Below, piece by piece: positions 1 to 44,167 of a DNA stretch of 46,329 nucleotides (within the stretch, counting starts at the first letter, position 1; each line of letters begins with the position of its first letter). The stretch comes from an uncultured Spirochaetaceae bacterium. GTDB lineage: Bacteria; Spirochaetota; Spirochaetia; Sphaerochaetales; Sphaerochaetaceae. The stretch covers positions 1 to 46,329 of the forward strand of contig CALXOL010000018.1 in the NCBI GenBank assembly GCA_944390015.1. Direction: 5' to 3'. A program made the translations under genes and the position numbers. Below the pieces are notes generated by a model that saw only the letters and a program-made list of their open reading frames with translations, was not told the DNA's origin and did no database searches.

Positions 1-1794
1 GATAGAAGAATCGATGTCTATGTAAATGAGAACCTCCCATATGCTAACGACCTCATCGATGCAAGAATCAACACATATGTAGATGAGAACATCGGTTATG
101 TAGATACAATCGTGGATGATAGGATCAATGCGTTCGTAAACGAGAATCTTCCATATGTCGATGAAATAATCGATGGAAGGATCGATGTCTATGTAAATGA
201 GAACCTCCCATATGCTAACGACCTCATCGATGCAAGAATCAACACATACGTGGATGAGAACATCGGTTATGTAGATACAATCGTGGATGATAGGGTCAAT
301 GCGTTCGTAAACGAGAATCTTCCATATGTCGATGAAATAATCGATGGAAGGATCGATGTGTATGTAAATGAGAACCTCCCATATGCTAATGATCTCATTG
401 ATGCGAGAATCAACACATACGTAGATGAGAACATCGGTTATGTAGATACAATCGTAGATGATAGAATCAATGCATTCGTAAACGAGAATCTTCCATATGT
501 TGACGAAATGATCGATGGAAGGATCGATGTCTATGTAAATGAGAACCTCCCATATGCTAATGACCTCATTGATGCGAGAATCAACACATACGTAGATGAG
601 AACATCGGTTATGTAGATACAATCGTAGATGATAGAATCAATGCATTCGTAAACGAGAATCTTCCATATGTCGATGAAATAATCGATGGAAGGATCGATG
701 TCTATGTAAATGAGAACCTCCCATATGCTAATGACCTCATTGATGCGAGAATCAATACATATGTGGATGAGAACATCGGCTATGTAGATACAATCGTGGA
801 TGATAGAATCAATGCATACGTGGATGAGAATCTCCCATACGCAGAAGATCTTGTAATCGATATTATTGATGAATATGTTCTTGAGAACATTGTATCTGAT
901 GATGGTTCTGTATATGTGACGAATCCTGATACTTCCGATATGGATGCAAGGATTCAGGAATATGTTGATGAGAACCTTCCTTACGCATTGGATATTATCG
1001 ATGAGAGAATTAACAGCTTTGTTAATGATAATATTCCTGCTGCAAAGGAATTTGTTAACGATGAAATCGATGTATATGTAAATGAGAATCTCCCATATGC
1101 TAATGACCTTATCGATGCAAGAATCAATACATATGTAGATGAGAACATCGGCTATGTAGATACCATCGTAGCAGATGGAATCAACGAGTATGTAAACGAG
1201 AATCTTCCATATGCAAATGATCTTATCGATGCAAGAATCAACACATACGTAGACGAGAACATCGGTTATGTGGATACAATCGTGGCAGATGGAATCAACG
1301 AGTATGTGAATGAGAATCTTCCATATGCAAACGATCTTATCGATGCAAGAATCAATACATACGTGGATGAGAACATCGGCTATGTTGATGACATAGTTGC
1401 AGAACGTGTAGATGCGTATGTGGATGAGAATATCGCATATGCGGATGACTTCGTAGATTCTAGAATTGATGCATATGTAAATGAGAACCTTCCATATGCT
1501 AATGATTTGATTGATTCTAGAATCGAGAAATATGTAGATGAGAACATCGGCTATATCGAGAGTGTTGTTGCCGATGAGAAAGAGGCTGAGGAGGAGAGCG
1601 TTCCTGTAGAGGAGAGTATCCCCGTGGTAAGCTCTTATGAGGATGAGCAAGAGGCTGTTGCGGAAGCTGAACCTGTAAGAGTCGTTTCTAATCCCGTATT
1701 CAGTTTCGATGAGACTTCTTCGCTCGGTTCTCAGAGCAGAGAAGATGTCAGGAACAATGCTATAAGAAGCATTCTTGATTCATTGGTTGACTGA
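1..1794 (+). CDS. Tandem 19-residue repeat protein, 5' end outside window
   Basis: The reading frame is open from base 1, so the gene starts upstream. The GTG at 112 is an ordinary valine codon inside a repeat and not a real start. About 27 units of 19 residues fill roughly the first 520 visible residues. The consensus is D-x-R-I-[ND]-x-[YF]-V-[DN]-E-N-[LI]-[PG]-Y-[AV]-[DN]-x-[IL]-[IV], for example DARINTYVDENIGYVDTIV. A degenerate stretch near residues 285-312 interrupts the array. The last 75 residues are acidic and non-repetitive (Glu/Val/Ser-rich) and end in ILDSLVD. Each unit looks amphipathic and helical, so a long rod or coiled structure is plausible. I recognise no family. Surface, filament or cytoskeletal roles are all possible. 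The stop overlaps the 3' end of the convergent epmB gene by 15 bases. Confidence 0.85.
   Translation, partial: DRRIDVYVNENLPYANDLIDARINTYVDENIGYVDTIVDDRINAFVNENLPYVDEIIDGRIDVYVNENLPYANDLIDARINTYVDENIGYVDTIVDDRVNAFVNENLPYVDEIIDGRIDVYVNENLPYANDLIDARINTYVDENIGYVDTIVDDRINAFVNENLPYVDEMIDGRIDVYVNENLPYANDLIDARINTYVDENIGYVDTIVDDRINAFVNENLPYVDEIIDGRIDVYVNENLPYANDLIDARINTYVDENIGYVDTIVDDRINAYVDENLPYAEDLVIDIIDEYVLENIVSDDGSVYVTNPDTSDMDARIQEYVDENLPYALDIIDERINSFVNDNIPAAKEFVNDEIDVYVNENLPYANDLIDARINTYVDENIGYVDTIVADGINEYVNENLPYANDLIDARINTYVDENIGYVDTIVADGINEYVNENLPYANDLIDARINTYVDENIGYVDDIVAERVDAYVDENIAYADDFVDSRIDAYVNENLPYANDLIDSRIEKYVDENIGYIESVVADEKEAEEESVPVEESIPVVSSYEDEQEAVAEAEPVRVVSNPVFSFDETSSLGSQSREDVRNNAIRSILDSLVD
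115..798 (+). repeat. Four 171-bp tandem repeats (each 3 x 57 bp)
   Basis: Copies start at 115, 286, 457 and 628, exactly 171 bases apart, and differ by only a few mostly third-position changes. Each copy encodes three distinct 19-residue units in fixed order. Bases 1-114 are the last two units of a preceding copy. The near-identity points to recent expansion or homogenisation by unequal exchange. Confidence 0.92.
1171..1398 (+). repeat. Two 114-bp tandem repeats (2 x 57 bp)
   Basis: In the same gene, copies starting at 1171 and 1285 encode the unit pair beginning ADGINEYVNENLPYANDLI followed by the DARINTYV unit. The higher-order period here is two units instead of three, so this array expanded separately from the 171-bp array. 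Confidence 0.85.
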
Positions 1795-24734: not shown

Positions 24735-24851
24735 AAAAGATGTTTGGACTTCAGGATCGAGTAATCCGACTGAAGATAGGGTCTCCAGACCATCTAAGAT
24801 GGGCACTCTTAGCCTCAGAGCAATGGCTCTTTGGCGGAGTGCCTTTATTAT
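24735..24851 (+). ncRNA. Candidate structured RNA directly downstream of tRNA-fMet
   Basis: Four stem-loops are packed in about 100 bases. They are CTTCAG/CTGAAG (24749-24775), GGTC/GACC with a TCCA loop (24780-24791), a weak CATC/GATG (24791-24801), and a long stem GGCACTC/GAGTGCC (24802-24843). The long stem encloses GCC/GGC and AGAGC-AATG-GCTCT, and TTTATTATT follows. No ribosome binding site or convincing reading frame is present. It could be a cotranscribed processed small RNA, or just an elaborate terminator for the tRNA and the convergent ATPase gene. I do not recognise a known RNA family. Confidence 0.45.
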
Positions 24852-26206
24852 TCCTTGTATATCTCTTTGCCTGAAATCTGCCTGATGGGTAACTCGTTAG
24901 CTTCAAAACCCGAGGAGGCTATCATTCCGAAATTAGAAACTGACAATCCTTCAAGGCGTGTTGCTTTCTCGATTTCCTCTCTCATAAGAACCTCTGGCAA
25001 TGGTTTTTCATAATATTTTACCTCATAGATCTCATAGCCGTCCAAGGTTTCAAGCGCTATGTCGAATTCTCCGTTTGTTTTTTTAATCCTGTCATCATAC
25101 CAGTATGTCCCTATGGCTATTACATCTTCTCTATCCAATTGGCTGAAATATTGTTTTGCAATGTCTTCAAAACGATAGCTTATGAATGTATTAAGGCTTG
25201 GAGAGATATACTTTTCAAAGTATGCTCTTTTTGATCCTGTAATTTGTGCTCCGATTACGTAAGTCATATAGAATCTGATTAGGTTTGAACTTATGAAATA
25301 GAATGTTTTCTTTTTATCATCAGGCTTATTTATCGGGTTCATCTTCTCAATCAGATGTGTCTCTGTTAATTCCTTCAAGATTTTTGAAAGCTGTCTTCTC
25401 TTTTTCTCATCAGAAATGCTGGATTCTATCTGGCTGTAATGCTTTTTCCCGTTCCCAATTCGTTTAATGATGATTTCTCCGTTGTTAATAGGAGATATTT
25501 CCTTGTCTATTACGCTCTCAACATAATAACGTGCAAATCCTTCTTCTGCGAGTATTAGATCCTCTATATTACCTTCAATGCCTTTTTCAGGAATGATCTG
25601 GGAAAGAATATTCGGCAGTCCGCCAAATACGGCATAGTAAGCGATTTTCTCCATGATTGGAGTGTTCTTATAAAAATTAGAAGCCTCCAGGTAATTCAGC
25701 TCTTTGAGATTAATTATGGTTGAAAATCTCATAAAGAGTGGATTTGAATTATCTATTATCAGATTTTCAAGAACCCTAACGGCACTTCCTGAGATTATGA
25801 CATTTATGTTGTCTTTCGAGTAATCAATGAAATCTCTTATCAATGCATCAACTAACACGGCTTCTGCTTTGTTATTTCCTCTGAAATCCTGATACTCATC
25901 TATGACCAAGGTTATGTTCTCATCTCTTTTACTTAAATATTGGAAGTATTTTCTTGGATCGCTGAATTCAATCCATGGTTCATTTAACGCTTCGCTTGTA
26001 ACGAGGGAAAGATTTCTCATGTTGCCACTTATTTCATCTGGTGTGGCAGTGAATACTATCTTTACTCCGGTGTAGTCTTTCAGTGCTTCAAGGATGAGAC
26101 TTGTTTTTCCTATTCTTCGTCTCCCATAGACCAGTATGGCCGCTTTACTCCTGCTCTCTATTGCCTTCTTGATTATATCGAGTTCTTTTTTCCTGCCGAC
26201 AAACAT
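24848..26206 (-). CDS. AAA ATPase with C-terminal DUF234-type domain
   Basis: This 452-residue protein begins MFVGRKKELDIIKKAI, the usual opening of archaeal-type ATPases. Walker A is GRRRIGKT (28-35) and Walker B is TLVIDEYQDF (about 99-108), followed by an IISGSAVR sensor-like motif. A winged-helix-like middle (KRRQLSKILKELTETHLIEKM) leads to a C-terminal nuclease-like region with GEFDIALETLDGYEIYEVKYYEK, whose D...E.K pattern resembles PD-(D/E)XK enzymes. The cellular role of this family is unsettled. It is distinct from the two DUF4143 ATPases near 40-43 kb and has no repeat array at its 5' end. Its 3' end meets the structured region after the tRNA. Confidence 0.85.
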   Translation of the reverse strand: MFVGRKKELDIIKKAIESRSKAAILVYGRRRIGKTSLILEALKDYTGVKIVFTATPDEISGNMRNLSLVTSEALNEPWIEFSDPRKYFQYLSKRDENITLVIDEYQDFRGNNKAEAVLVDALIRDFIDYSKDNINVIISGSAVRVLENLIIDNSNPLFMRFSTIINLKELNYLEASNFYKNTPIMEKIAYYAVFGGLPNILSQIIPEKGIEGNIEDLILAEEGFARYYVESVIDKEISPINNGEIIIKRIGNGKKHYSQIESSISDEKKRRQLSKILKELTETHLIEKMNPINKPDDKKKTFYFISSNLIRFYMTYVIGAQITGSKRAYFEKYISPSLNTFISYRFEDIAKQYFSQLDREDVIAIGTYWYDDRIKKTNGEFDIALETLDGYEIYEVKYYEKPLPEVLMREEIEKATRLEGLSVSNFGMIASSGFEANELPIRQISGKEIYKE

Positions 26207-26302
26207 GATTTTTACCTATTAATTTTTTACTAAATTATTTTTAAGTAAATTATAATTATGTAAAGTTAGTTCGTCAATCTTTTGTTTCTATGGGAGACAT
26301 TG

Positions 26303-32829: not shown

Positions 32830-33921
32830 ATGAAAAAGATACTTACAATTCTTACAGTTGCACTTCTCGCATGTACAACTGTATTCGCAGCTTTAAATGT
32901 AAGTGGTGAGTTCGAAGCTGGTTACAAGTTTAGCTTTGACGGTGGCTTTACAGCAGCACCTGAGGATGACGAGGGTAAAGAAGGTAAAGTAACATTAAAA
33001 ATTACAGATGATGCAGGAATCTGGACTGTTAACATAAAAGCTCTTGATGAGCTTGATTCAGGCAACGCTCTTAAGGCAAATCTTTCACTTAACGTAGCAG
33101 CTCTTCTTGCAGCTAATGGCGTAGACATGGGAGATGTAAGCCTTGCTCTCAGCCTTGGTGGAAATGATAAGCTTACAGCGCTTTCTGCTTATAATGATGT
33201 AACAGGTGACGGTGGATTTAAGTTCAAGAATAATTCTAAGGGCTGGGGAAAGTATGGTTATTCAACTGAAATATCTGTAGGTTACGGAGATCTGATTCAG
33301 GCAAAGTTTGGAATCGATCCTGTTTATGAACCAACATCAGAAATGCCAATAGTAGCAAGTGTAATGTCAGCTCCTGTCGATGGAGTTAAGGTATCTGTTG
33401 CTTATTCTCACAATGCAGTAATTTACGCATTAGGTAGCGATGGAAATGCAGTTAATGTAACAAATGCATTTGGTGGTGCTGTTGACTTGAACATTGGCGC
33501 TCTCCTTGATAGCGATTTTGCTCTTGGTGTAACTGTTTACGACAACTTCGGATGGGGCGGATTCACAAGCTCAGCTAAAGGTGTAGATCCTATAGGAGAT
33601 ACATACAATGCATTCGCAGCTGCTGTTTATGGTGGAGTTGATGTAGTTGACGCTTTCTTCGAGCTCAGAATGGATAATGCAACTAGCGCAAAGAAGACAA
33701 CTACCACTCTTGGTATGAAGACTCAGGTTAACCTCAACGTCGTTGAAAACCTCGGACTTGATGTTTATCTTGCTGCTAGTGACTTCTCTGATTTCGGTAA
33801 TACATTCGCAGTTGGTGGAGATGCTTCTTACACAATCTCTGGTGTAAAGTTTGCTGCAAACCTCGAGTATGGTGCAACAGCAGGATTCTCAGTAACACCG
33901 AAAGTTGTTATTACATTCTAA
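32830..33921 (+). CDS. Outer-membrane barrel protein, paralog OMP1
   Basis: This 363-residue protein has the signal peptide MKKILTILTVALLACTTVFA, cleaved after VFA. The mature part is rich in alternating beta-strand patterns, Gly and aromatics, and ends VTPKVVITF, a C-terminal beta-signal with terminal Phe. Blocks shared with its paralogs are ALSAYNDVTGD, VYGGVDVVDAFFE and NVVENLGLDV; the segments between vary. This suggests a porin-like major outer-membrane protein with variable surface loops. It has the strongest promoter of the family and lacks the leader hairpin of OMP2-OMP4. The first 89 bases are identical to OMP2. Confidence 0.85.
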   Translation: MKKILTILTVALLACTTVFAALNVSGEFEAGYKFSFDGGFTAAPEDDEGKEGKVTLKITDDAGIWTVNIKALDELDSGNALKANLSLNVAALLAANGVDMGDVSLALSLGGNDKLTALSAYNDVTGDGGFKFKNNSKGWGKYGYSTEISVGYGDLIQAKFGIDPVYEPTSEMPIVASVMSAPVDGVKVSVAYSHNAVIYALGSDGNAVNVTNAFGGAVDLNIGALLDSDFALGVTVYDNFGWGGFTSSAKGVDPIGDTYNAFAAAVYGGVDVVDAFFELRMDNATSAKKTTTTLGMKTQVNLNVVENLGLDVYLAASDFSDFGNTFAVGGDASYTISGVKFAANLEYGATAGFSVTPKVVITF

Positions 33922-33972: not shown

Positions 33973-33999
33973 GTAGAATTCTATAAAAATCGCTAATCA

Positions 34000-34141
34000 T
34001 TCGTCATTAAAATCTTTGTACTGTATACTTTTGTTGACAAGTACGAAAAAATGACGAAAAAAAAGCATAGGTAATTCAGCCTTCGCCATGAAACTTTCCC
34101 TTCAAGATTTCGAGAAAGATAATATTGCATAACTACTAACC
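34000..34141 (+). pseudogene. Relic of a DUF4143 ATPase module
   Basis: TTCGTCATTAAAATC (34000-34014) is one orphan unit of the repeat found three times before the ATPase at 41609. About 45 bases on, an open stretch (34061-34132) encodes KSIGNSAFAMKLSLQDFEKD and then NIA before a stop. This resembles the family C-termini QAIRLSRKNVGEEGK and AGIKLTTGNIGVENN. The 11 bases after the stop (AACTACTAACC, 34131-34141) recur after the C-terminal remnant of the broken ATPase (38772-38782). The body of the gene is missing. A few dozen bases of similarity make this suggestive, not certain. Confidence 0.5.
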
Positions 34142-34212: not shown

Positions 34213-35307
34213 TCAATGATCAACTTTTAAAGAATCTGTATCCAAGTCCGTAAGTGTTTCCATCATACTTACATTCACGTAATAACTATCTCTTCCTATA
34301 CGGATCTTCGCTAGGAGATTATCTGAGGTAAGAATATCAAGGTATTTCCTTGCAGTAAGATAGGAAACACCAAGCTTCTCCTTGAGAATCCCTATTCTTG
34401 AATATGGATAGGAGAACAGGACATTTATCAAATCTTGGCTATAAAACGATGGATGGTTATCCCGTATTCTGTGTTTATACTCCATCATCATGGTTTTAAG
34501 AGAAGTCACAAGATCTCTTGTCAGCCTGGATGTGCGAATAACCCCTTCCAGCATGAAGAGTACATATTTCTCCCACTGCTCTGCACTGCCGGAATCCCTG
34601 ACAGACTGAAGATATCTGTAATACAATCCCTTGTTGATGTTGATATACCTAGACAAATACAATACCGGATAATCCAACAATCCCTCATGTAGCAGATAAA
34701 GTATATTCAATATCCTACCCGTTCTTCCATTGCCATCGTAAAATGGATGTATACTTTCAAACTGATAATGCAATATTGCCATCTTAACCAATGGGTCTGC
34801 TTCCCAAGCTGAATCATCATTGAAGTAGAGTAAGAAATTATCCATTAAAGCAGGAAGTTCGTCAGGCATTGGCGGCTCATATACAATCTCATTCGTTCTA
34901 TCATTCACCAAAGCAGTACCGGGAAGCTTACGCAATCCCGCATTATTGCACTCGATAGTAGCCTGTATTTCTTCGATACAACTAAGAGAAAGGATTTTCC
35001 TTTGACTGTATATATGATATCCACGCATTATAGCATCAACATAATGAAGTACTTCCTTTGTAGCTGTTTTTATCTCAGAAAACTCTGGGTTGGCTATAGC
35101 AGTATAGATATCTGCATGTGTCGTGATTATGTTCTCTATCTCTGAGCTGTCCTTGGCTTCCTGAAGCGCAAGTGTATGCACAAGCACAGCTTGGTTTGGG
35201 ATTGAAGCACATATGCCATTGAGAAGCGCCAGCTCTCTATGGGCGGCAATCAACTTCTTAAGAATCTCTGTTGTTTCAAAATTAAAAGATACTGGTAATT
35301 TATTCAT
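34213..35307 (-). CDS. Fic-domain protein with Fic_N and winged-helix parts
   Basis: This is about 364 residues from MNKLPVSFNFET. The Fic_N-type N-terminal domain includes AHRELALLNGICASIPN and the inhibitory-helix motif SSEIEN (S54, E58, N59), which normally blocks ATP binding. The catalytic motif HPFYDGNGRTGR (187-198) is complete, including the histidine. The C-terminal third contains a winged-helix-like FSYPYSRIGILKEKLGVSYL. Such proteins AMPylate target proteins; targets are unknown. An upstream in-frame ATG (35346) would add 13 residues. It sits alone between OMP1 and OMP2, in reverse orientation to both. Confidence 0.88.
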   Translation of the reverse strand: MNKLPVSFNFETTEILKKLIAAHRELALLNGICASIPNQAVLVHTLALQEAKDSSEIENIITTHADIYTAIANPEFSEIKTATKEVLHYVDAIMRGYHIYSQRKILSLSCIEEIQATIECNNAGLRKLPGTALVNDRTNEIVYEPPMPDELPALMDNFLLYFNDDSAWEADPLVKMAILHYQFESIHPFYDGNGRTGRILNILYLLHEGLLDYPVLYLSRYININKGLYYRYLQSVRDSGSAEQWEKYVLFMLEGVIRTSRLTRDLVTSLKTMMMEYKHRIRDNHPSFYSQDLINVLFSYPYSRIGILKEKLGVSYLTARKYLDILTSDNLLAKIRIGRDSYYVNVSMMETLTDLDTDSLKVDH

Positions 35308-35418
35308 GGTACGTACTCTTAAACAGTATCTGGCACAAACCATCACAAGTCAATAATATTTATAAATTTCATTATATTTTTATAATTTAAATTAAAAAAT
35401 ATATGTAAATCTGAAAAT

Positions 35419-35664: not shown

Positions 35665-36777
35665 ATGAAAAAGATACTTACAATTCTTACAGTTGCACTT
35701 CTCGCATGTACAACTGTATTCGCAGCTTTAAATGTAAGTGGTGAGTTCGAAGCAGGTTACAAGTTTTCCTTTATAGATGGAAAATATGCCGCTGAAAGCC
35801 AGGATGCAAAAGAAGGTAAATTCGTATTAAAGGTTACAGATGATGCAAACATCTGGACAATCAACATCAAGGCTCTTGATAAGCTTGATTCAAGCAACAA
35901 GCTTGATGGAAACCTTGCACTCGACTTAGACGCTCTTCTTGCTGCAAACGGCGTTGATATGGGCGATGTAAGCCTTGCACTCAGCATCGGTAACAACAGT
36001 GCAATGACAGCACTTTCTGCTTACAATGATGTAACAGGTGATGCTGGATACAAGTTTAAGAATAACGGAAACTACTCAACAGAACTTGCTGTAGGATATG
36101 GCGATTACATCCAGACAAAGATTGCATTCGACCCTGTTGCAACTGTAAAGGATTTAGATGGTAAGGTTAAAAAAGAGGGAAATGGTTCTTTAGTACTTAG
36201 TGCAATGACTGCTCCTGTTGATGGAGTTAAGGTATCTCTCGCATATTCACGCGATGCTATCATCTATGCAAAGGGAAGCGATGATAATGCTATCTATGCA
36301 GTAAACGCATTTGGCGGTGCTGTTGATTTAAATGTTGGCGCTCTTGCTGGTCTTGACTTCGACCTTGGTGTAAGCGTTTATGACAACTACGGTTGGGGCG
36401 GTACAAGTGTAAAAAATGAAACAACGGAAAAGTTGGAGCCAAAAGGAAAAGCATACAATGCATTAGCAGCTGCTGTTTATGGTGGTGTTGATGTAGTTGA
36501 TGCATTTGTTGAGTTCAGAGTTGATAGTAACATTGATGCTAAAGCAGTTACAACTGTTGGAATGAAATCACAGGTTAACTTCAACGTAGTAGAGAACCTC
36601 GGACTTGATGTGTTCTTCAATATCGGCAATTTTGATGAATTCAAGTCAACATATGAGGTCGGCGGCGATGTTTCCTATACACTCTCTGGTGTAAAGTTCG
36701 CAGCAAACCTCAAGTATGCTGGAGATACAGGAAATGGTGTATTCTCAATCACACCAAAGGTTGTTGTAACATTCTAA
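35665..36777 (+). CDS. Outer-membrane barrel protein, paralog OMP2
   Basis: This 370-residue protein has the same signal peptide as OMP1, and 89 identical bases from the start codon (35665-35753). The mature protein ends ITPKVVVTF with terminal Phe. Shared blocks are TALSAYNDVTGDAGYKFKNN, VYGGVDVVDAFVEFRVD and NVVENLGLDVFFNIGNFDEF. The segment around residues 155-175 (DLDGKVKKEGNGS) and one near 250 (NETTEKLEPKGKA) are specific to this copy and are probably surface loops. A leader hairpin hides the ribosome binding site. The 3' flank is nearly identical to that of OMP1 through the terminator. Confidence 0.85.
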   Translation: MKKILTILTVALLACTTVFAALNVSGEFEAGYKFSFIDGKYAAESQDAKEGKFVLKVTDDANIWTINIKALDKLDSSNKLDGNLALDLDALLAANGVDMGDVSLALSIGNNSAMTALSAYNDVTGDAGYKFKNNGNYSTELAVGYGDYIQTKIAFDPVATVKDLDGKVKKEGNGSLVLSAMTAPVDGVKVSLAYSRDAIIYAKGSDDNAIYAVNAFGGAVDLNVGALAGLDFDLGVSVYDNYGWGGTSVKNETTEKLEPKGKAYNALAAAVYGGVDVVDAFVEFRVDSNIDAKAVTTVGMKSQVNFNVVENLGLDVFFNIGNFDEFKSTYEVGGDVSYTLSGVKFAANLKYAGDTGNGVFSITPKVVVTF

Positions 36778-36946: not shown

Positions 36947-38050
36947 ATGAGCAGCATATATATCTGGCAGAGAGATGACTGGCCATCATTTACATGGGAT
37001 ATCGAGAAGCTATTACCACTCCTTTATGACACGGTAAGAAAGGAATCTCTTTTTCTTGGACGTATCTCTTCATTAAACAATGAAGTGAAAGAGTCATCGT
37101 TTTCAAATGCTCTTACCGATGAAATCATTTCATCAAGTGCGATAGAGAACATCACTCTTAAAAGAGATTCTGTCCGCTCTTCCCTATTAGCTCAATTAGG
37201 TTTCGATAATCAGGGGAAAACAAATTCCGATCATTATATAGAAGGTGCTGTAAGTATAGCTCTTGATGCCGTTAACAATAATGATATGATGCTGACGAAA
37301 GAGAGGCTTTTCGGATGGCATTCCATGCTGTTTCCAAATGGATTATCTGGGGGAAAGAGAATCATTGTTGGAAACTGGAGAAAAGGCGACATGTATGTCG
37401 TCTCAGGAAACCTCGGGAAAGAGATAATCCATTATGAGGCTCCTCCTGCAGAAAGAATCGATAAGGAAATTGATACTTTTCTTTCCTTCATAAATGAGAA
37501 TAATGATGTGAATCCTTTAATCAAAGCTGCGGTTGCGCATCTATGGTTTGTGACAATCCATCCATTCGGGGATGGCAATGGAAGAATTGCAAGAACCATA
37601 TCTGAAATGCTCTTAGCAAGAGCGGATGGAATGAGACAAAGGTATTACAGCTTATCTGCAGAGATCATGAATAACAGGAAAGCATACTATGATGTTCTTG
37701 AATACAGCCAGAAGAGCACACTGAATGTTACGAAGTTCATAGAATATTTCTTGAAAACACTTCAAGAAGCAATAGCAAGAGCAGATGAGAAAGTAAGCCA
37801 TACATTATCAAAAACGGCTTTCTGGGATTCTATCAGGCTGATACCTCTTAATGAGCGTGAGGTCAAACTTATAAACAAGCTGTATGATGGCTTTGAAGGA
37901 AAGTTGACTACGGAAAAATGGGCAAAACTTGCAAAATGCTCCCACTCTACCGCATTAAGGGATATCAAGGATCTGATAGAAAAAGGCATCCTTGTTGAGG
38001 ATGGCTGCAAAAGCAAGAACACAGGATATCTTTTAAAGCAAGTCCCATAG
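36947..38050 (+). CDS. Fic-domain protein with DUF4172 N-terminus
   Basis: This 367-residue protein begins MSSIYIWQRDDWPSFTWDIEK, the DUF4172 opening (aromatic Q-x-x-W-P-x-F-x-W). The inhibitory motif is SSAIEN (S63, E67, N68), followed by the typical LKRDSVRSS. The catalytic motif HPFGDGNGRIAR (205-216) is intact. The C-terminus has a winged-helix-like segment (KWAKLAKCSHSTALRDIKDLIEKG). It is presumably an AMP-transferase with built-in autoinhibition. The last two codons and stop (CCATAG) lie inside the first unit of the downstream 33-bp repeat array, so the present 3' end may have been created when that module arrived. Confidence 0.9.
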   Translation: MSSIYIWQRDDWPSFTWDIEKLLPLLYDTVRKESLFLGRISSLNNEVKESSFSNALTDEIISSSAIENITLKRDSVRSSLLAQLGFDNQGKTNSDHYIEGAVSIALDAVNNNDMMLTKERLFGWHSMLFPNGLSGGKRIIVGNWRKGDMYVVSGNLGKEIIHYEAPPAERIDKEIDTFLSFINENNDVNPLIKAAVAHLWFVTIHPFGDGNGRIARTISEMLLARADGMRQRYYSLSAEIMNNRKAYYDVLEYSQKSTLNVTKFIEYFLKTLQEAIARADEKVSHTLSKTAFWDSIRLIPLNEREVKLINKLYDGFEGKLTTEKWAKLAKCSHSTALRDIKDLIEKGILVEDGCKSKNTGYLLKQVP

Positions 38051-38142
38051 AAAAATGTGATTCTCTCCTTATTATTCGCCTAGAAAAGTGTAATATTTCT
38101 ATTGTTATTCCCATAGAAAAGTGTAGACTTACTATATGGAAA
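38044..38142 (+). repeat. Array A: three 33-bp repeats before the broken ATPase
   Basis: Units start at 38044, 38077 and 38110. The cores are CCCATAGAAAAATGTGATT, CGCCTAGAAAAGTGTAATA and CCCATAGAAAAGTGTAGAC. Units 1 and 2 also end alike (TTATT). The first overlaps the stop of the upstream Fic gene and the last runs into the ATPase start codon at 38136. Confidence 0.75.
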
Positions 38143-38766
38143 GATTTATATACAAAGAACTTATTGCATGAAAAAAACAGCAAGGAAAGAAAACCATTAA
38201 TACTTGAGAGTGCCCGACAGGTTGGAAAGACTTGGATTCTCAAGGAATTCGGGAAAAAAGAGTACTCAAAACTTGCGTATATAAACTGTGATAATAATGC
38301 CCAGATGAATTTGCTGTTCTCTGATTTCGATACTTCAAGGCTAATCAGAGGATTCTCTGCAATCTCAGGAGTAACGATAACACCTGATGATACGCTATCG
38401 TTCAGGATGAGGTGCAGGAAGTTCCACTCGCCATCACGACATTAAAATACTTTCAGGAGAATGCGCCTGACTATCATATAGCAGTTGCAGGATCTTTCCT
38501 TGGAATACTTTTGCACGGAGGAACGGGCTTCCCTGTTGGAAAGGTAGATAGTCTTACGTTATACCCTCTATCTTTTTCTGAATTCATGCTGGCCAATAAC
38601 AAAAAACACCTTTTAGATGCTTTGAGAGATTATAAGTTCGTTGAAACAAAACAGTGAACTGAAAGGAATGAGGTTCTCCATGGCTCCATACGAGGAGCAG
38701 GAAAACATAATAAACATTCCCCTGCTTTTTGCTAAAGAATACTTAAAAATGTTAATGAAAGAATAG
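38136..38766 (+). pseudogene. DUF4143-type AAA ATPase, frameshifted and internally deleted
   Basis: The frame opens MERFIYKELIA, shifts at an A7 run (38171-38177) and continues KERKPLILESARQVGKTWIL with an intact Walker A. It shifts again near 38395-38400 (one base lost in CTATCG), then reads QDEVQEVPLAITTLKYFQEN (Walker B region) to ALRDYKFVETKQ. The central and nuclease-like part, about 240 residues, is missing. A third frame from 38659 supplies the C-terminal end (KGMRFSMAPYEEQENIINIP) up to the stop at 38766. Three independent lesions make it non-functional. It belongs to the group typically beginning MERKIYKxLLxWK, a different subgroup from the two intact ATPases downstream. Confidence 0.88.
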
Positions 38767-38822
38767 TTTAAAACTACTAACCCGTACTGAACTCTATTCT
38801 TCATTCTTTAAGTAAAATTCCA

Positions 38823-38863
38823 ATAAAACATTCATAATTCCTCGCTTTTCATGCCGAGGAAGT
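38823..38863 (+). promoter_or_regulatory. OMP3 leader with ribosome-binding-site hairpin
   Basis: CCTCG (38840-38844) pairs with CGAGG (38855-38859), five bases before the ATG, covering the GAGG ribosome binding site. From 38823 into codon 8, 65 bases are identical to the OMP4 region. Confidence 0.65.
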
Positions 38864-39925
38864 ATGAAAAAGATACTTACAATTCTTTTAGTAGCTATTC
38901 TCGCTTCTGCTACTCTCTTTGCTGTAGACATCAGCGGAAGATTCAGAGCTGGTTACACATTTAATTTCAATGAAGGTGTTACTGTAACTGAATGGAAGTC
39001 AGAGGAAGCAAAGTTCACATTCAAGGTTTCTGATGATGCAGGAATCTGGACAATCAACATCAAAGATTTCAGAGGAGATCTTGATTCAAACGATAAACTT
39101 GGTGCAAACCTCTCTCTTAACATGGCCGCTCTTCTGGCTGATAATGGTGTTGATCTTGGTGACGTAAGCCTTGCTGTAAGCATTGGAGCTAACGACCAGA
39201 TGACAGCTCTTTCTGCATATAATGATGTTACAGGTGATGGTCTCTTTAAACTCAAGAATGACGGCCTGCATTCAACAGAAATCGCAGTTGGCTATGGTAG
39301 CGTCATCCAGACAAAGATTGCAGTCGATCCTACTTCTGAAGTAACAAAGAAGATGCCTCTTGTTGTCAGCGCAATGACAACTCCAGTTGAGGGTGTAAGC
39401 CTCTCTGTTGGTTATGCATATAATGGATATATGTACACTGCGAATAAAGCAGCCTGGGGAACAAAAACGGAAGGGTCTGTTGATCATGGTGTAACAGTAG
39501 CTACTAACGTTAACGTTGGAACACTCGCAGGCCTTGATTTCGACCTTGGTGTAACAGCTTATGACAACATTGGATTTGTTGGAAAGGATAGCACATACAA
39601 TAGCTTCGCAGCAGCAGTTTATGGCGGCGTAGATGTTGTTGATGCATACTTCGAGTTCAGAATGGACAACACAAAGGATGCAGATGTTGCTGCTGATAAC
39701 GTATTCGGAATGAAATCTCAGGTTAACTTCAACGTAGTTGAGAACCTTGGTCTTGATGTATTCTTCAACATTGGCAACTTTGAGACAGTTGGTGAAACAT
39801 TCGAAGTTGGAGGAGATGTTTCTTATACAGTCTCTGGTGTAGAGTTTGCAGCTAACCTTAAGTATGCTGGTGGTGGTGATGAAGCTGGATTCTCAGTTAC
39901 ACCAAAGGTAATCGTAGTATTCTAA
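38864..39925 (+). CDS. Outer-membrane barrel protein, paralog OMP3
   Basis: This is 353 residues. The signal MKKILTILLVAILASATLFA is the most diverged of OMP1-OMP4; only the first 24 bases match. The mature part begins VDISGRFRAGYTFNF and ends VTPKVIVVF. It shares with OMP4 the block TTPVEGVSLSVGYAYNGYMY and DHGVTVATNVNVGTLAGLDFDLGVTAYDNIGF, so OMP3 and OMP4 form a subgroup apart from OMP1 and OMP2. The interior differs between copies mainly around residues 180-200. The leader hairpin is present and the terminator is of family type. Confidence 0.85.
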   Translation: MKKILTILLVAILASATLFAVDISGRFRAGYTFNFNEGVTVTEWKSEEAKFTFKVSDDAGIWTINIKDFRGDLDSNDKLGANLSLNMAALLADNGVDLGDVSLAVSIGANDQMTALSAYNDVTGDGLFKLKNDGLHSTEIAVGYGSVIQTKIAVDPTSEVTKKMPLVVSAMTTPVEGVSLSVGYAYNGYMYTANKAAWGTKTEGSVDHGVTVATNVNVGTLAGLDFDLGVTAYDNIGFVGKDSTYNSFAAAVYGGVDVVDAYFEFRMDNTKDADVAADNVFGMKSQVNFNVVENLGLDVFFNIGNFETVGETFEVGGDVSYTVSGVEFAANLKYAGGGDEAGFSVTPKVIVVF

Positions 39926-39952
39926 GCTTTAGAAGAGATAAGATTTATCTGA

Positions 39953-39978
39953 CCGGATCCGTTTGGGTCCGGTTTTTT
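39953..39978 (+). terminator. OMP3 terminator (family type)
   Basis: CCGGATCC (39953-39960) pairs with GGGTCCGG (39965-39972), then TTTTTT. The sequence between stop and stem differs from that after OMP1, OMP2 and OMP4. Confidence 0.92.
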
Positions 39979-40001
39979 GTTTGAAAAAACAAGTATAATT
40001 A

Positions 40002-40097
40002 GCTCATTTTTTAGTAGTTAAATTCAATTATTCGCTCTTTTTTTAGTGATTCTTGATAGATATTCACTCATCTTTTAGATTATTATTGAATTATTTC
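40002..40097 (+). repeat. Array B: three 32-bp repeats before the first intact ATPase
   Basis: Units start at 40002, 40034 and 40066. Cores are GCTCATTTTTTAGTAGTTA, GCTCTTTTTTTAGTGATTC and ACTCATCTTTTAGATTATT. The junctions read ATTATTCG, ATATTCA and ATTATTTC. The array ends 25 bases before the ATPase ATG at 40122. Confidence 0.65.
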
Positions 40098-40121
40098 TTC
40101 TCTGGTAATAGAATATCTTAT

Positions 40122-41468
40122 ATGTACTTAAAAAGGAAAATTGATGACTATTTGGAACAGTGGAAAAACAATTCCGATAGAAAGCCTTTAATCATTAAAG
40201 GATCCAGACAGGTTGGCAAAACGGAATCTGTCCGTAATTTTGCAGCTAAGCACTATTCCAGTTTCATAGAAATCAATTTCGTAGAAGAGCCGTATTACGC
40301 TTCAATAGTCGAGCGAGGTTATAAAACAGATAACATAATCAAGGCAATCTCCTTTATTGATCCTGACAAGAGATTCATTGCAGGAGAAACACTGATTTTC
40401 TTTGATGAGATACAGAATTTCCCTGACATAGCAACAAGTTTGAAATTCTTCAAGCAGGATGGCCGCTTTGATGTAATCTGTAGCGGTTCACTTTTAGGAA
40501 TAAACTACCATACGATAGAAAGCAACAGCGTGGGATATAAAACAGATTATGAAATGAATTCTTTTGATTTTGAAGAATTCCTATGGGCTAACGGAAGAGA
40601 AGGAGATAGGGAGAACATTCTTTTCCATATGCATAATCTTAATCCGTTCTCTCAGCTGGAACTTGATATCTACAACGATTTATTCATGTCATTTTCCATT
40701 CTTGGAGGGATGCCGGAAGTAGTACGCAATTATGTGGAAAAAAAGACTTTTGAAGGATCCCTTGCAACACAGAAACAGATTCTACTTGATTACAAGGAAG
40801 ATATCAAAAAATATACCAAGGGTATTGAGCAGACTAGGATTCTAAACGTATTCAACAGTATTACACCCCAGCTTGCGAAAGAGAATAAGAAGTTTCAGAT
40901 ATCAAAAGTTGCAAAAGGCGCAAAATCAAATGATTACTGGGGCTGTGTTACCTGGCTGGAGCAATCTGGAATAGTAAAGCTATGCCACAATCTCAACTTC
41001 CCTGAACTGCCATTAAAAGGCAATGCAGATGAAGATACCTTCAAAATATACTTCTCTGATGTAGGCATCTTGATAGCAAGCCTGGATGATGAGGCCCAGG
41101 ATGATTTAAGAACAAATAAAAACATGGGAATATATAAAGGGGCAATTTACGAGAACATTGTTGCAGATGCTTTTGCAAAGGAAGGATATGATCTCTTCTA
41201 CTATAAGAAACCTGATTCCACTTTGGAAGAAGATTTCTTCATAAGAGGTAAATCACATCTCATTCCAGTCGAAGTCAAAGCAACCAACAGGAAATCTAAA
41301 TCGCTTATTACTTTGATAAAAAGTGAGAGGTATAAGGATATCGAAGCTGGAATAAAACTAACAACTGGAAATATAGGCGTTGAAAATAACATCTATACAT
41401 TCCCCTTATTCTGCGCGTTTCTGCTTAAAGAGTTCATACAGGATACGAATAGAAGTGATTTGTATTGA
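40122..41468 (+). CDS. AAA ATPase with C-terminal DUF4143 nuclease-like domain (first copy)
   Basis: This is 448 residues from MYLKRKIDDYLEQWKN, aligned with the start of the next gene; an upstream in-frame TTG (40053) would run into the repeats. Walker A is GSRQVGKT (27-34) and Walker B is LIFFDEIQNFP (91-101). SGSLLGINY is the sensor-like segment, and FEEFLWA follows. The C-terminal part has the nuclease-like LIPVEVKATNRKSKSL (E-x-K). Such proteins are abundant in anaerobes and their role is unsettled. No good ribosome binding site is visible. It lies between OMP3 and a second ATPase of the same subgroup. Confidence 0.9.
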   Translation: MYLKRKIDDYLEQWKNNSDRKPLIIKGSRQVGKTESVRNFAAKHYSSFIEINFVEEPYYASIVERGYKTDNIIKAISFIDPDKRFIAGETLIFFDEIQNFPDIATSLKFFKQDGRFDVICSGSLLGINYHTIESNSVGYKTDYEMNSFDFEEFLWANGREGDRENILFHMHNLNPFSQLELDIYNDLFMSFSILGGMPEVVRNYVEKKTFEGSLATQKQILLDYKEDIKKYTKGIEQTRILNVFNSITPQLAKENKKFQISKVAKGAKSNDYWGCVTWLEQSGIVKLCHNLNFPELPLKGNADEDTFKIYFSDVGILIASLDDEAQDDLRTNKNMGIYKGAIYENIVADAFAKEGYDLFYYKKPDSTLEEDFFIRGKSHLIPVEVKATNRKSKSLITLIKSERYKDIEAGIKLTTGNIGVENNIYTFPLFCAFLLKEFIQDTNRSDLY

Positions 41469-41477
41469 AAAGTACAA

Positions 41478-41576
41478 TTCGTCGTCAAAATCGATACAGA
41501 AGCCCAAATATTCGTCGTTAAAATCGATGTAAAAGGCTGATTATTCGTCGTTAAAATATTAAATTCTAGTTGTAAT
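41478..41576 (+). repeat. Array C: three 33-bp repeats before the second intact ATPase
   Basis: Units start at 41478, 41511 and 41544. Cores are TTCGTCGTCAAAATCGAT, TTCGTCGTTAAAATCGAT and TTCGTCGTTAAAATATTA. The first two match in 17 of 18 bases while the remaining 15 bases of each unit are largely unrelated. The array starts nine bases after the stop of the first ATPase and ends 32 bases before the ATG of the second. Confidence 0.82.
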
Positions 41577-41608
41577 TGCTTATATAATAGTATATTATAA
41601 ATTATACC

Positions 41609-42991
41609 ATGCTAAATAGAAAAATTGATGGATATCTAAAAGAATGGAAATCTGATTCTGATAAGCTGCCACTCATCATTGAAGGGGCACGGCAAGTCGG
41701 AAAGACAACTTCCATAATGGCTTTTGCTAAAAAAAACTATAAAACCGTATATGAGCTTAATTTTTTCACTCATCCTGAACATGTTTCCATATTTTCAGGT
41801 TCCTTGGAAAGCGATGAAATTCTATTCAGATTGTCATTAGCATTTCCCGATAAAGAATATATTGCGGGAAGCACATTAATTTTTCTTGATGAGATACAGG
41901 ATTGCCCAAATGCAAGAACTGCTTTAAAGTTTCTTGCTCGCGATGAAAGATTTGATGTCATTGCTTCAGGTTCATTACTTGGGATAAATTACAAGTCAGT
42001 TCCTTCTTTTCCTGTGGGTTATACAAGAACTATAAAGATGTATCCTCTGGATTTTGAAGAGTTCCTCTGGGCGATGAAAATAAAAAACGAGATTATAGAA
42101 GCCTTGCATGAATGTTTTATAAATCGAACAGCGGTTGATTCATACGTTCATGAATCCATGCTCCGCCTTTTTTCCCTATATATTGTAATCGGCGGAATGC
42201 CTGCAGCCGTGAATCAATTTGTTAAGGAAAGAAATTATGCAAAGGTAAGAATCATACAGAAAAACATTCTTAATGATTACAAGAAAGATGTAATTAAATA
42301 TGCAGATGAAGCTGAGAAAGTAAAAATAATACGCTGTTTAGAGTCCGTCCCAGCCCAACTGGCAAAAGGATACAAGAAATTTCAATATTCTGTAGTTGAA
42401 AAAGGATCCAGTTCTTCAAAATATGGAGGAGCGCTTTTATGGCTCAAAGATTCAGATATTATTTCTTTTTGCAATAATTTATCTTTGCTTGAAAGTCCGT
42501 TATCTGCTTATTCAATAGAAAAAGAATTTAAAGTGTATATGAACGACAATGGCCTTCTTGTGTCGATGTATGAAAACGATACTGCCAAAAAACTGATGGA
42601 AGGAGAACTTGGCTTATTCAAAGGTGCATTTTATGAGAATGTCATAGCCACAAACTTGATAGCTTTGGGGCACAGGCTTTTTTACTTCTCACCTTCTGAT
42701 ACCCTTGAAATCGATTTTATCATAAACTACAAAGGTGCTCCTTGCTTACTAGAAGTGAAAAGCGGAGAAAATACAAAATCTAAATCGTTGAACACGGTAT
42801 TGAATAATCCAAAGTATAAAGTCAATCAGGCCATACGGCTCTCTAGAAAGAATGTTGGAGAAGAAGGAAAAATTCTAAGTCTACCTCTATACATGATAAT
42901 GTTCTTAAAAGATGAAATTGATAACAGCTGGGAGAACAATCTTCCAGATCCAGAACAACTGTTAGAAGCACTAAAAAAGCAAATGAAGTAA
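41609..42991 (+). CDS. AAA ATPase with C-terminal DUF4143 nuclease-like domain (second copy)
   Basis: This 460-residue protein begins MLNRKIDGYLKEWKSDSDKL. Walker A is GARQVGKT (26-33) and Walker B is LIFLDEIQDCP (90-100), with SGSLLGINY shared exactly with the upstream copy. The C-terminal nuclease-like motif is PCLLEVKSGENTKSKSLNTV. The two proteins align throughout yet are clearly diverged, so this is an old duplication or two separate acquisitions and not a recent tandem copy. A TATAAT box (41583-41588) lies 20 bases before the ATG, and no ribosome binding site is apparent. The gene has its own 33-bp array. Confidence 0.9.
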   Translation: MLNRKIDGYLKEWKSDSDKLPLIIEGARQVGKTTSIMAFAKKNYKTVYELNFFTHPEHVSIFSGSLESDEILFRLSLAFPDKEYIAGSTLIFLDEIQDCPNARTALKFLARDERFDVIASGSLLGINYKSVPSFPVGYTRTIKMYPLDFEEFLWAMKIKNEIIEALHECFINRTAVDSYVHESMLRLFSLYIVIGGMPAAVNQFVKERNYAKVRIIQKNILNDYKKDVIKYADEAEKVKIIRCLESVPAQLAKGYKKFQYSVVEKGSSSSKYGGALLWLKDSDIISFCNNLSLLESPLSAYSIEKEFKVYMNDNGLLVSMYENDTAKKLMEGELGLFKGAFYENVIATNLIALGHRLFYFSPSDTLEIDFIINYKGAPCLLEVKSGENTKSKSLNTVLNNPKYKVNQAIRLSRKNVGEEGKILSLPLYMIMFLKDEIDNSWENNLPDPEQLLEALKKQMK

Positions 42992-43078: not shown

Positions 43079-44167
43079 ATGAAAAAGATACTTACAATTC
43101 TTACAGTTGCACTTCTCGCATGTACAACTGTATTCGCAGCTTTTAATGTAACTGGTGAGTTCGAGGCTGGTTATAAATTCGGATTCAACGGTGGTTTTTC
43201 AGCTGAAGCGCAGGATAATGCAGAAGGTAAGGTTACTTTTAAAATCACAGATGATGCAGGAATCTGGACTGTTAATGTAAAGGCTCTTGACGAGCTTGAT
43301 TCAAGTAACAAGCTTGATGCAAACCTTTCTCTTGATATTGCAGCACTTCTTGCCGCTAATGGAACAGATCTTGGAGATTTTGATCTTGCTTTAAGCATTG
43401 GTGCTAACAGCAAGATGACAGCACTTTCTGCTTACAATGATGTTACAGGCGATGAGCTCTTTAAGCTTAAGAGTAACGGAGAATACTCAACAGAGTTAAC
43501 AATTGGTTATGGTAACCTTGTTCAGGCAAAAATTGCTGTTGATCCTACAGCAAAAGTTTCAAAAGAAATGCCTATCATCGTAAGTGCCAAGACAACTCCA
43601 GTTGAAGGAGTCAGTGTATCAGCTGGTTATACATATCAGGGATATATGTATCTTGCTGCAATCAATCCATTAGAGTGGGTAATTGTGGCAACTGAACCAG
43701 GTAAGGAAAACGAAGAAAAGGCTGAAGGTGTTGTTGATCATGGTGTAACAGTAGCAGCAGATGTTAATGTTGGAACACTCGCTGATCTTGACTTTAACCT
43801 TGGTGTAACAGCTTATGATAACATTGGATTTAAAGACAAAACCGTATTTAACACACTTGCTGCTGGCATATATGGTGGCGTAGACGTAGTAGACGGTTTC
43901 TTTGAATTCAGAATGGACAACTATACTGTAGACAAGGCTCCTACAACAACTGTTCTCGGAATGAAGACACAGGTTAACATCAATGTAGTTGAGAATCTTG
44001 GTCTTGATGTTTACTTCAATATTGGCAACTTTGATGAATTCAAGACAACATATGCAGTTGGAGGAGACGTTTCTTACACACTCTCTGGAGTTAAATTTGC
44101 TGCAAACCTCGACTACGCTGGCACTGGTGGATTCTCTATCACACCAAAGATTGTTGTAACATTCTAA
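43079..44167 (+). CDS. Outer-membrane barrel protein, paralog OMP4
   Basis: This is 362 residues. The first 65 bases are identical to OMP1 and OMP2, giving the same signal peptide, while the interior resembles OMP3 (TTPVEGVSVSAGYTYQGYMY and DHGVTVAADVNVGTLADLDF). The copy-specific insert near residues 195-215 (INPLEWVIVATEPGKENEEK) is probably a surface loop. The C-terminus ITPKIVVTF is a proper beta-signal. The 5' end like OMP1/2, centre like OMP3 and 3' flank like OMP1/2 make this copy look mosaic. Confidence 0.85.
   Translation: MKKILTILTVALLACTTVFAAFNVTGEFEAGYKFGFNGGFSAEAQDNAEGKVTFKITDDAGIWTVNVKALDELDSSNKLDANLSLDIAALLAANGTDLGDFDLALSIGANSKMTALSAYNDVTGDELFKLKSNGEYSTELTIGYGNLVQAKIAVDPTAKVSKEMPIIVSAKTTPVEGVSVSAGYTYQGYMYLAAINPLEWVIVATEPGKENEEKAEGVVDHGVTVAADVNVGTLADLDFNLGVTAYDNIGFKDKTVFNTLAAGIYGGVDVVDGFFEFRMDNYTVDKAPTTTVLGMKTQVNINVVENLGLDVYFNIGNFDEFKTTYAVGGDVSYTLSGVKFAANLDYAGTGGFSITPKIVVTF

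What the first reader, a model, noticed from the sequence alone, without database searches (positions are those of the whole stretch)
38044..41576. Each DUF4143-type ATPase is preceded by its own three-unit repeat array with a 32-33-bp period
Three separate loci show the same design. Array A (38044, 38077, 38110; period 33), array B (40002, 40034, 40066; period 32) and array C (41478, 41511, 41544; period 33) each end within about 35 bases of an ATPase start codon. Within a locus roughly 17 bases are conserved and the rest drifts. Between loci the word differs but the edge (ATTATTCG[CT]C) recurs. This resembles locus-specific iterons: each ATPase may bind its own array for autoregulation, partition-like handling or as an addiction/immunity label. 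I know of no description of this pairing.
Basis: partly seen in the sequence, partly recalled or inferred. Interest (0 to 1): 0.75.

Follow-up and report, generated by a model that had tools for sequence, protein, structure and literature searches.

The report
Private repeat operators before defence-candidate ATPases
Each gene of a very common but unexplained bacterial ATPase-nuclease family (a suspected anti-phage gene) carries directly in front of it a short row of three or four evenly spaced DNA words that, where tested, occur almost nowhere else in the genome, most likely so that the protein can bind there and keep its own gene under control.

Summary
Arrays A, B and C are real (p 0.001, 0.008, 0.001 against dinucleotide shuffles). 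Of 77 homologues of the window ATPase from Bacteroidales, Bacillota, Spirochaetes, other bacteria and archaea, 77 have their best direct repeat in the 200 bp before ATG at 32/33 bp or twice that (other upstream regions: about 9%). The modal number of copies is three. Each unit is a roughly 20-bp bipartite word (left word, A-tract, right word) plus a drifting 13-bp spacer. Four words tested genome-wide occur essentially only in their own array. Words are shared by ATPases over 60% identical, even across phyla, and differ between paralogues in one genome. The period is a clade trait: 33 bp in PDC-S01 ATPases like the window's, 23 bp in the KWCGK clade, 15 bp in PDC-S27 ATPases; 4 changes on the tree against 34-39 after shuffling. 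The protein is AAA+ plus winged helix plus an intact PD-(D/E)xK motif. In 20 of 20 Bacteroidales loci the promoter box keeps one fixed phase with the array. Best explanation: a private autoregulatory operator bound by the ATPase itself. Binding and phage defence are unproven. I found no paper describing the pairing.

The parts
38044..38131 (+). Array A: three units, period 33; word TTCGCCTAGAAAAGTGTA-like; first unit overlaps the stop codon of the Fic gene 36947-38050
   Evidence: lag 33, p 0.001
38136..38766 (+). Relic of a DUF4143-type ATPase: P-loop and AAA_14 pieces in broken frames (38164-38445, 38412-38657), DUF4143 lost
   Evidence: pieces 62-75% identical to intact ATPases L164 and L213
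39995..40097 (+). Array B: units at about 40002, 40034, 40066 (period 32); word TATTCGCTCTTTTTTTAG
   Evidence: p 0.008
40086..40114 (+). Promoter-like hexamers TTGAAT (40086-40091) and TAGAAT (40109-40114), overlapping the last unit of array B; weak match, close to the ATG
   Evidence: consensus match only
40122..41468 (+). ATPase B: AAA_14 + DUF4143 (PDC-S01 type), 448 aa
41477..41560 (+). Array C: three units, period 33; word ATTCGTCGTTAAAATCGAT
   Evidence: p 0.001
41559..41588 (+). Promoter-like hexamers TTAAAT (41559-41564) and TATAAT (41583-41588); the -35-like box abuts the last word of array C
   Evidence: consensus match only
41609..42991 (+). ATPase C: AAA+ (1-235), winged helix (236-311), PD-(D/E)xK (312-432); 460 aa, PDC-S01 type
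33999..34015 (+). Isolated degenerate copy of the array-C word (2 mismatches) in an intergenic region; probable relic of a lost array
24848..26206 (-). Second kind of the same design: ATPase_2 + DUF234 ATPase (PDC-S27 type)
26210..26264 (-). 15-bp-period array directly upstream of the PDC-S27-type ATPase
   Evidence: lag 15, p 0.02

Best explanation
The array is an autoregulatory operator that belongs to one ATPase only. The ATPase, an AAA+/STAND-like protein with a winged-helix domain and a PD-(D/E)xK nuclease domain, binds the three to four bipartite words upstream of its own start codon through its winged helix, probably cooperatively, one protomer or dimer per unit. Occupancy blocks its own promoter and keeps a potentially dangerous nuclease at low level; loss of binding (for example when the ATPase is recruited or activated by a trigger such as phage) would derepress it. 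Words have diverged so that the many paralogues in one genome do not cross-regulate each other, which makes each gene a self-contained unit that works after horizontal transfer. Shown here by computation: the arrays, their clade-specific period, privacy of the words, co-inheritance with the ATPase, promoter overlap, fold and motif of the protein. Inferred: binding by the ATPase, repression rather than activation, cooperativity. Not shown: phage defence and its trigger.
For: Period: 77/77 homologues with best lag 33/32 or double, 74/77 p<0.02; control upstream regions 17/185 at lag 31-34. Of 173 unique loci, 128 have a 33-array; 79 have three copies and 33 have four; spacing 33 (227), 32 (64), 31 (11). 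Period follows the ATPase tree: 4 changes, shuffled 34-39. Words are private: array C word only in its own array plus one 2-mismatch relic; 5/5 hits of the L012 word in its own array; 3 of 4 hits of the L256 word, the fourth with 3 mismatches elsewhere; 3/3 hits of the L247 word. Word tracks protein: similarity 0.59-0.74 above 60% identity, about 0.23-0.32 below 50%. Blind test: the best match to the array-A word among all loci is L213, from another phylum, whose ATPase is second nearest (62%) to relic A. Word identity between orthologues 0.73, spacer 0.43, upstream flank 0.36; TAnnTTTG in 20/20 Bacteroidales loci (expected 1.35), always at the same phase of the 33-bp unit. No neighbour gene family is shared by more than 4 of 77 loci, so the ATPase is the only constant partner. 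Winged helix at 236-311; nearest folds 2qen and 2fna, then STAND and Orc/Cdc6. Residues 263-274, entering the predicted recognition helix, are the protein window that best tracks the word in pooled pairs, rank 1 of 212; residues 262-284 hold 14 of the top 100 covarying pairs from 23 of 404 columns.
Against: No binding or expression data. The recognition-helix signal is modest and is lost among close relatives (about rank 33-35 of 212); other regions (121-146, 355-404) also score. Direct repeats could equally serve activation. Several DUF4143 subfamilies show no direct repeat. The 15-bp period is not a whole number of helical turns, so simple helical phasing does not explain all clades. In four Bacteroidales loci the promoter box lies one period before the first detected word rather than inside the array.
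Confidence: 0.74

Rival explanations
1. The array is more than an operator: it is the ATPase's own docking site or identity label, which holds the STAND-like ATPase-nuclease in an inactive assembly and turns DNA damage, phage takeover or loss of the array into nuclease activation (a tether or addiction switch).
For: ATPase of STAND/NLR-like fold with intact nuclease motif; strong word conservation; word privacy in the genome; PDC-S01 is a defence candidate.
Against: Nothing here tests activation. Promoter overlap already explains the array as an operator. Relic array A persists without an intact ATPase, and array-less relatives exist.
Confidence: 0.13
2. The arrays are bound by a host transcription factor or nucleoid protein rather than by the ATPase.
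For: Operators are usually bound by separate regulators; there are no binding data for the ATPase.
Against: Words are private to one gene in the genome, differ between paralogues of one genome, and go with the ATPase across phyla; no neighbour gene is conserved.
Confidence: 0.05
3. The array works as RNA in the 5' untranslated region (leader control or small RNA).
For: In Bacteroidales part of the array lies downstream of the promoter box.
Against: No Rfam match. In other phyla the -10-like box is mostly downstream of the last word (73%; median 7 bp), so the array would not be transcribed. Direct, not inverted, repeats with a strict 33-bp pitch suit DNA binding.
Confidence: 0.04
4. Iterons of a replicon or partition site: the ATPase is an initiator or partition protein.
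For: Direct repeats with regular pitch next to an AAA+ winged-helix ATPase; Orc1/Cdc6 among fold matches.
Against: Many copies per genome (up to 26-28 and more) on chromosomal contigs, each solitary; no conserved neighbour genes; the C-terminal domain is a PD-(D/E)xK nuclease fold.
Confidence: 0.02
5. Chance periodicity of AT-rich upstream DNA, or a CRISPR-like or insertion-site artefact.
Against: Shuffles and same-locus controls; period conserved by clade; words conserved more than spacers; units drift and have short 13-bp spacers, unlike CRISPR.
Confidence: 0.01

Closest known systems
PDC-S01 (PADLOC phage-defence candidate, single gene) and PDC-S27
   Same: The window ATPases match PDC-S01 models (E 1e-147 and 2e-152), and the 24848-26206 ATPase matches PDC-S27. 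Both are described as ATPases fused to a PD-(D/E)xK nuclease and are abundant in archaea and bacteria (PMC12988326).
   Different: The passages I read and my searches mention no upstream array, operator or autoregulation; function is unvalidated there.
Iterons and DnaA/Orc boxes of replication initiators
   Same: Several direct repeats next to the gene of a DNA-binding protein, with autoregulation in many cases (own knowledge).
   Different: Here there are many solitary chromosomal genes, each with a private word; no replicon; a nuclease domain; pitch of 33, 23 or 15 bp by clade.
Controller (C) protein operators of restriction-modification systems and toxin-antitoxin autoregulation
   Same: Mobile genes with dangerous products keep their own expression low through a private operator (own knowledge).
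   Different: There a small separate regulator binds a dyad. Here no second gene is present and the array is made of direct repeats, apparently read by the effector protein itself.
STAND ATPases with DNA-binding parts (MalT-like regulators; archaeal SSO1545 and PabY2304)
   Same: Fold: ATPase plus winged helix; 2qen Z 16.9, rmsd 4.3 over 265 residues; 2fna Z 16.1, rmsd 4.5 over 267. MalT binds direct repeats (own knowledge).
   Different: MalT is an activator with a separate C-terminal DNA-binding domain and no nuclease; I found nothing on DNA targets for 2fna and 2qen.

Membership tests
PDC-S01 | Matches PADLOC PDC-S01 profile over full length | tested here: met
   E 1e-147 (C, residues 1-439) and 2e-152 (B, residues 1-438)
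PDC-S01 | ATPase fused to PD-(D/E)xK fold | tested here: met
   Walker A; invariant E367, E382, K384; modelled fold
PDC-S01 | Solitary gene | tested here: met
   no neighbour family in more than 4 of 77 loci
PDC-S01 | Protects against phage | not testable with these tools
   needs bench work; [quoted passage not shown]
Iteron system | Regularly spaced direct repeats beside the gene of the binding protein | tested here: met
Iteron system | Repeats bound by the encoded protein | not testable with these tools
   only indirect: private words, co-inheritance, modest recognition-helix covariation
Iteron system | Part of a replication origin of a replicon | tested here: not met
   many solitary copies per genome on large contigs, no conserved neighbours
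Autoregulatory operator | Sites overlap or abut the gene's own promoter | tested here: met
   promoter box at one fixed phase of the array in 20/20 Bacteroidales; elsewhere -10-like box a median 7 bp after the last word; promoters are consensus matches, not mapped starts
Autoregulatory operator | Expression changes with the gene product | not testable with these tools
   needs a reporter assay
CRISPR array | Near-identical repeats separated by unique spacers of similar size to the repeat | tested here: not met
   drifting about 20-bp words with 13-bp spacers, 3-4 copies, before the ATPase ATG
STAND NTPases | ATPase followed by winged helix in STAND arrangement | tested here: inconclusive
   2qen and 2fna best, CED-4/NLR Z 13.5-14.6 over about 260 residues; STAND sequence motifs not tested

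The most novel reading that the evidence does not exclude
A very widespread class of solitary ATPase-nuclease genes (PDC-S01, PDC-S27 and relatives) carries its own address: a clade-specific, fixed-pitch array with a gene-specific word that the nuclease itself reads, serving both as operator and as the docking site that holds the nuclease silent until a trigger. This would be a self-contained one-gene immune or addiction unit with a DNA identity tag.
Probability: 0.2. Interest if true: 0.92.

Novelty: new variant of a known kind. Interest (0 to 1): 0.77.

Why it matters
PDC-S01 is reported as the fourth most common 'defence system' across prokaryotes, yet its mechanism is unknown (PMC12988326). 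The arrays give a concrete handle: a defined DNA ligand for each protein, a prediction about regulation, and a way to sort members by word and pitch. They turn 'what does this ATPase do' into simple binding and reporter assays, and the large set of naturally distinct protein-word pairs could be useful for synthetic gene circuits.

Tried and rejected
Phage-borne copies of the commonest Bacteroidales word: none in 2.9 million viral contigs. Relatives of the protein in viral contigs: only 5, all with the 32/33-bp array. Known RNA element: no Rfam match. Mapping specificity by mutual information: suggestive only, also hits outside the winged helix. Test for extra word divergence between paralogues in one genome at equal protein identity: small effect, too few pairs (0.260 against 0.316 at 40-50% identity, n=13). 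Helical phasing as the general rule: rejected as a full account because of the 15-bp class. Universal claim for all DUF4143 genes: rejected; the GIRRCGKS, GPRQSGKT and GPRMTGKT groups mostly lack direct repeats, and 21 of 58 loci without a direct repeat show a significant dyad. Papers on PDC-S27 and related names gave nothing on arrays. The genome search could not be centred on loci; the whole genome was not available as a file.
Full report
WHAT WAS CHECKED. The three arrays are present at the stated coordinates. Scored by the best ungapped self-match over lags 15-70 in the 150 bp before the start codon, and compared with 999 dinucleotide-preserving shuffles, array A gives lag 33 (p 0.001), B lag 32 (p 0.008) and C lag 33 (p 0.001). 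The genes after B and C are intact AAA_14 + DUF4143 ATPases (40122-41468, 41609-42991). The gene after A is a relic: two AAA_14 pieces in different frames and no DUF4143 domain. Its first repeat unit overlaps the stop codon of a Fic gene (36947-38050).

80 named homologues of ATPase C (35-49% identical) were fetched from Bacteroidales, Lachnospiraceae, Erysipelotrichaceae, Acholeplasmatales, Coriobacteriaceae, Kiritimatiellae, Spirochaetes and methanogenic archaea. In 77 with usable upstream DNA the best lag was 33 (64 loci), 32 (6), 66 (6) or 64 (1), that is 77 of 77 on one period; 74 had p<0.02 by shuffling. Upstream regions of other ORFs in the same loci had lag 31-34 in 17 of 185, and random windows in 8%. 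The five relatives found in viral contigs have it too. The homologues are not independent of each other (about 63 effective sequences among the 123 used for covariation), but they span several phyla.

GENERALITY AND CLADES. The window's genome holds 21 DUF4143 matches, genomes of the same genus 3-28, and one of the same class 42. Over 253 loci, including 22 ATPase_2 (PF01637) genes, the significant arrays fall into three pitches: 33 (134 loci), 22-24 (26) and 15 (13). The KWCGK-type P-loop clade has about 23 bp in 19 of 20; PF01637/DUF234 ATPases mostly have 15 or 16 bp; the RQ[VICT]GKT group has 33. On a FastTree tree the period changes only 4 times, against 34-39 with shuffled labels. Other subgroups lack direct repeats; some of them have a dyad. 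The tree, start codons (nearest suitable ATG) and clade labels by P-loop are approximate.

ANATOMY OF THE UNIT. Of 173 non-redundant loci, 128 carry a 33-bp array: three copies in 79, four in 33; spacings 33 (227), 32 (64), 31 (11), 34 (5), 35 (3); the last copy ends a median 33 bp before the ATG. Aligned units share a skeleton: a left word (GTCGCCC, ATTCGTCGT, CCTTT and others), a central A-tract, and a right word (GTGTA, TGACA, TGCA, CGTGA), about 20 bp together, then about 13 bp of spacer. Between orthologues of 60-85% protein identity the word is 73% identical, the spacer 43% and the DNA upstream of the array 36%.

PRIVACY AND CO-INHERITANCE. Four words were searched through whole genomes with 2-3 mismatches. 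All strong hits lie in the word's own array; exceptions are one 2-mismatch relic for word C (window 33999-34015) and one 3-mismatch site for L256. Paralogues in one genome have different words. Word similarity tracks protein similarity, 0.59-0.74 above 60% identity and near background below 50%. As a blind test, the best match of the array-A word among all loci is L213, a gene from a different phylum, and its ATPase is the second closest to the relic after array A (62% identity). No neighbouring gene family recurs in more than 4 of 77 loci, so the ATPase is the array's only constant companion.

PROMOTERS. In 20 of 20 Bacteroidales loci the box TAnnTTTG, the Bacteroidetes -7 element (own knowledge), is present (expected 1.35). 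Its distance to the first word is always 17-21 plus a multiple of 33 (including minus one unit), so it sits at one fixed phase at the end of a word; in four loci this is one period before the first detected word, in three directly at the end of the last word, otherwise inside the array. In other phyla a sigma70-like pair is found in 70 of 103 loci, with the -10 box a median 7 bp after the last word, so that the last unit covers the -35 region. This is the layout of an operator; whether it represses or activates is inferred.

THE PROTEIN. AlphaFold2 on an alignment of 59 window and locus proteins gives pLDDT 93 and pTM 0.90: AAA+ 1-235, winged helix 236-311, PD-(D/E)xK 312-432 (domain borders read from the secondary structure). 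Walker A and the nuclease residues E367, E382 and K384 are invariant. Closest solved folds are the archaeal ATPases 2qen (Z 16.9, 265 residues, rmsd 4.3) and 2fna (Z 16.1), then CED-4/NLR STAND proteins and Orc1/Cdc6. The protein segment whose identity best tracks word similarity beyond overall identity is 263-274, entering the predicted recognition helix (rank 1 of 212 windows over all pairs, rank 2 among distant pairs, but about rank 35 among close pairs). The mutual-information test points the same way, weakly.

WHAT IS KNOWN. The ATPases match PADLOC PDC-S01, and the 24848-26206 gene matches PDC-S27. [quoted passage not shown] Searches for DUF4143, COG1373, PDC-S01, PDC-S27 and related terms in 5.4 million open papers gave no description of upstream arrays; subscription papers and preprints were not searchable.

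VERDICT. A real, strongly conserved and, as far as I can find, undescribed feature: private, fixed-pitch, bipartite operator arrays before solitary ATPase-nuclease genes. The most likely role is autoregulation by the ATPase itself (0.74). A further role as docking site or safety catch for the nuclease is open (0.13 as the main role).

Noticed in passing
window 24848-26264 (-): A PDC-S27-type ATPase (ATPase_2 + DUF234) in the same window has its own 15-bp-period array directly upstream; most of 22 relatives examined have best lag 15 or 16.
   Followed up: yes
window 33999-34060: Lone copy of the array-C word followed by TTGACAAGTACGAAAA, as upstream of paralogue L007: probable scar of a lost array and ATPase.
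   Followed up: partly
window 38864-39925 and 43079-44167 (also 32830-33921, 35665-36777): ORFs of about 350-370 aa with signal-like starts and no Pfam match (38864, 43079 and 32830 and 35665 tested); the first two share an identical leader (CATAAAACATTCATAATTCCTCGCTTTTCATGCCGAGGAAGT) and the ATPase genes sit in the gaps between them. Porin-like is a guess.
   Followed up: no
window 34213-35346 (-) and 36947-38050 (+): Two Fic genes of different build (Fic_N + Fic + SoFic-like C; DUF4172 + Fic) close to the ATPases; the second matches PADLOC SoFic.
   Followed up: no
window 1-1550: ORF 112-1794 is built of 57-bp (19-aa) tandem repeats with 114- and 171-bp higher-order periods.
   Followed up: no
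L007, L010, L051, L093, L100 and others: The left word often begins TTCG or GTCG in unrelated phyla, so part of the word is common to the 33-bp clade while the rest is gene-specific.
   Followed up: partly
L008, L015, L017, L019, L031, L162: Some DUF4143 genes without a direct repeat have a strong dyad near the start codon: an alternative operator layout.
   Followed up: partly
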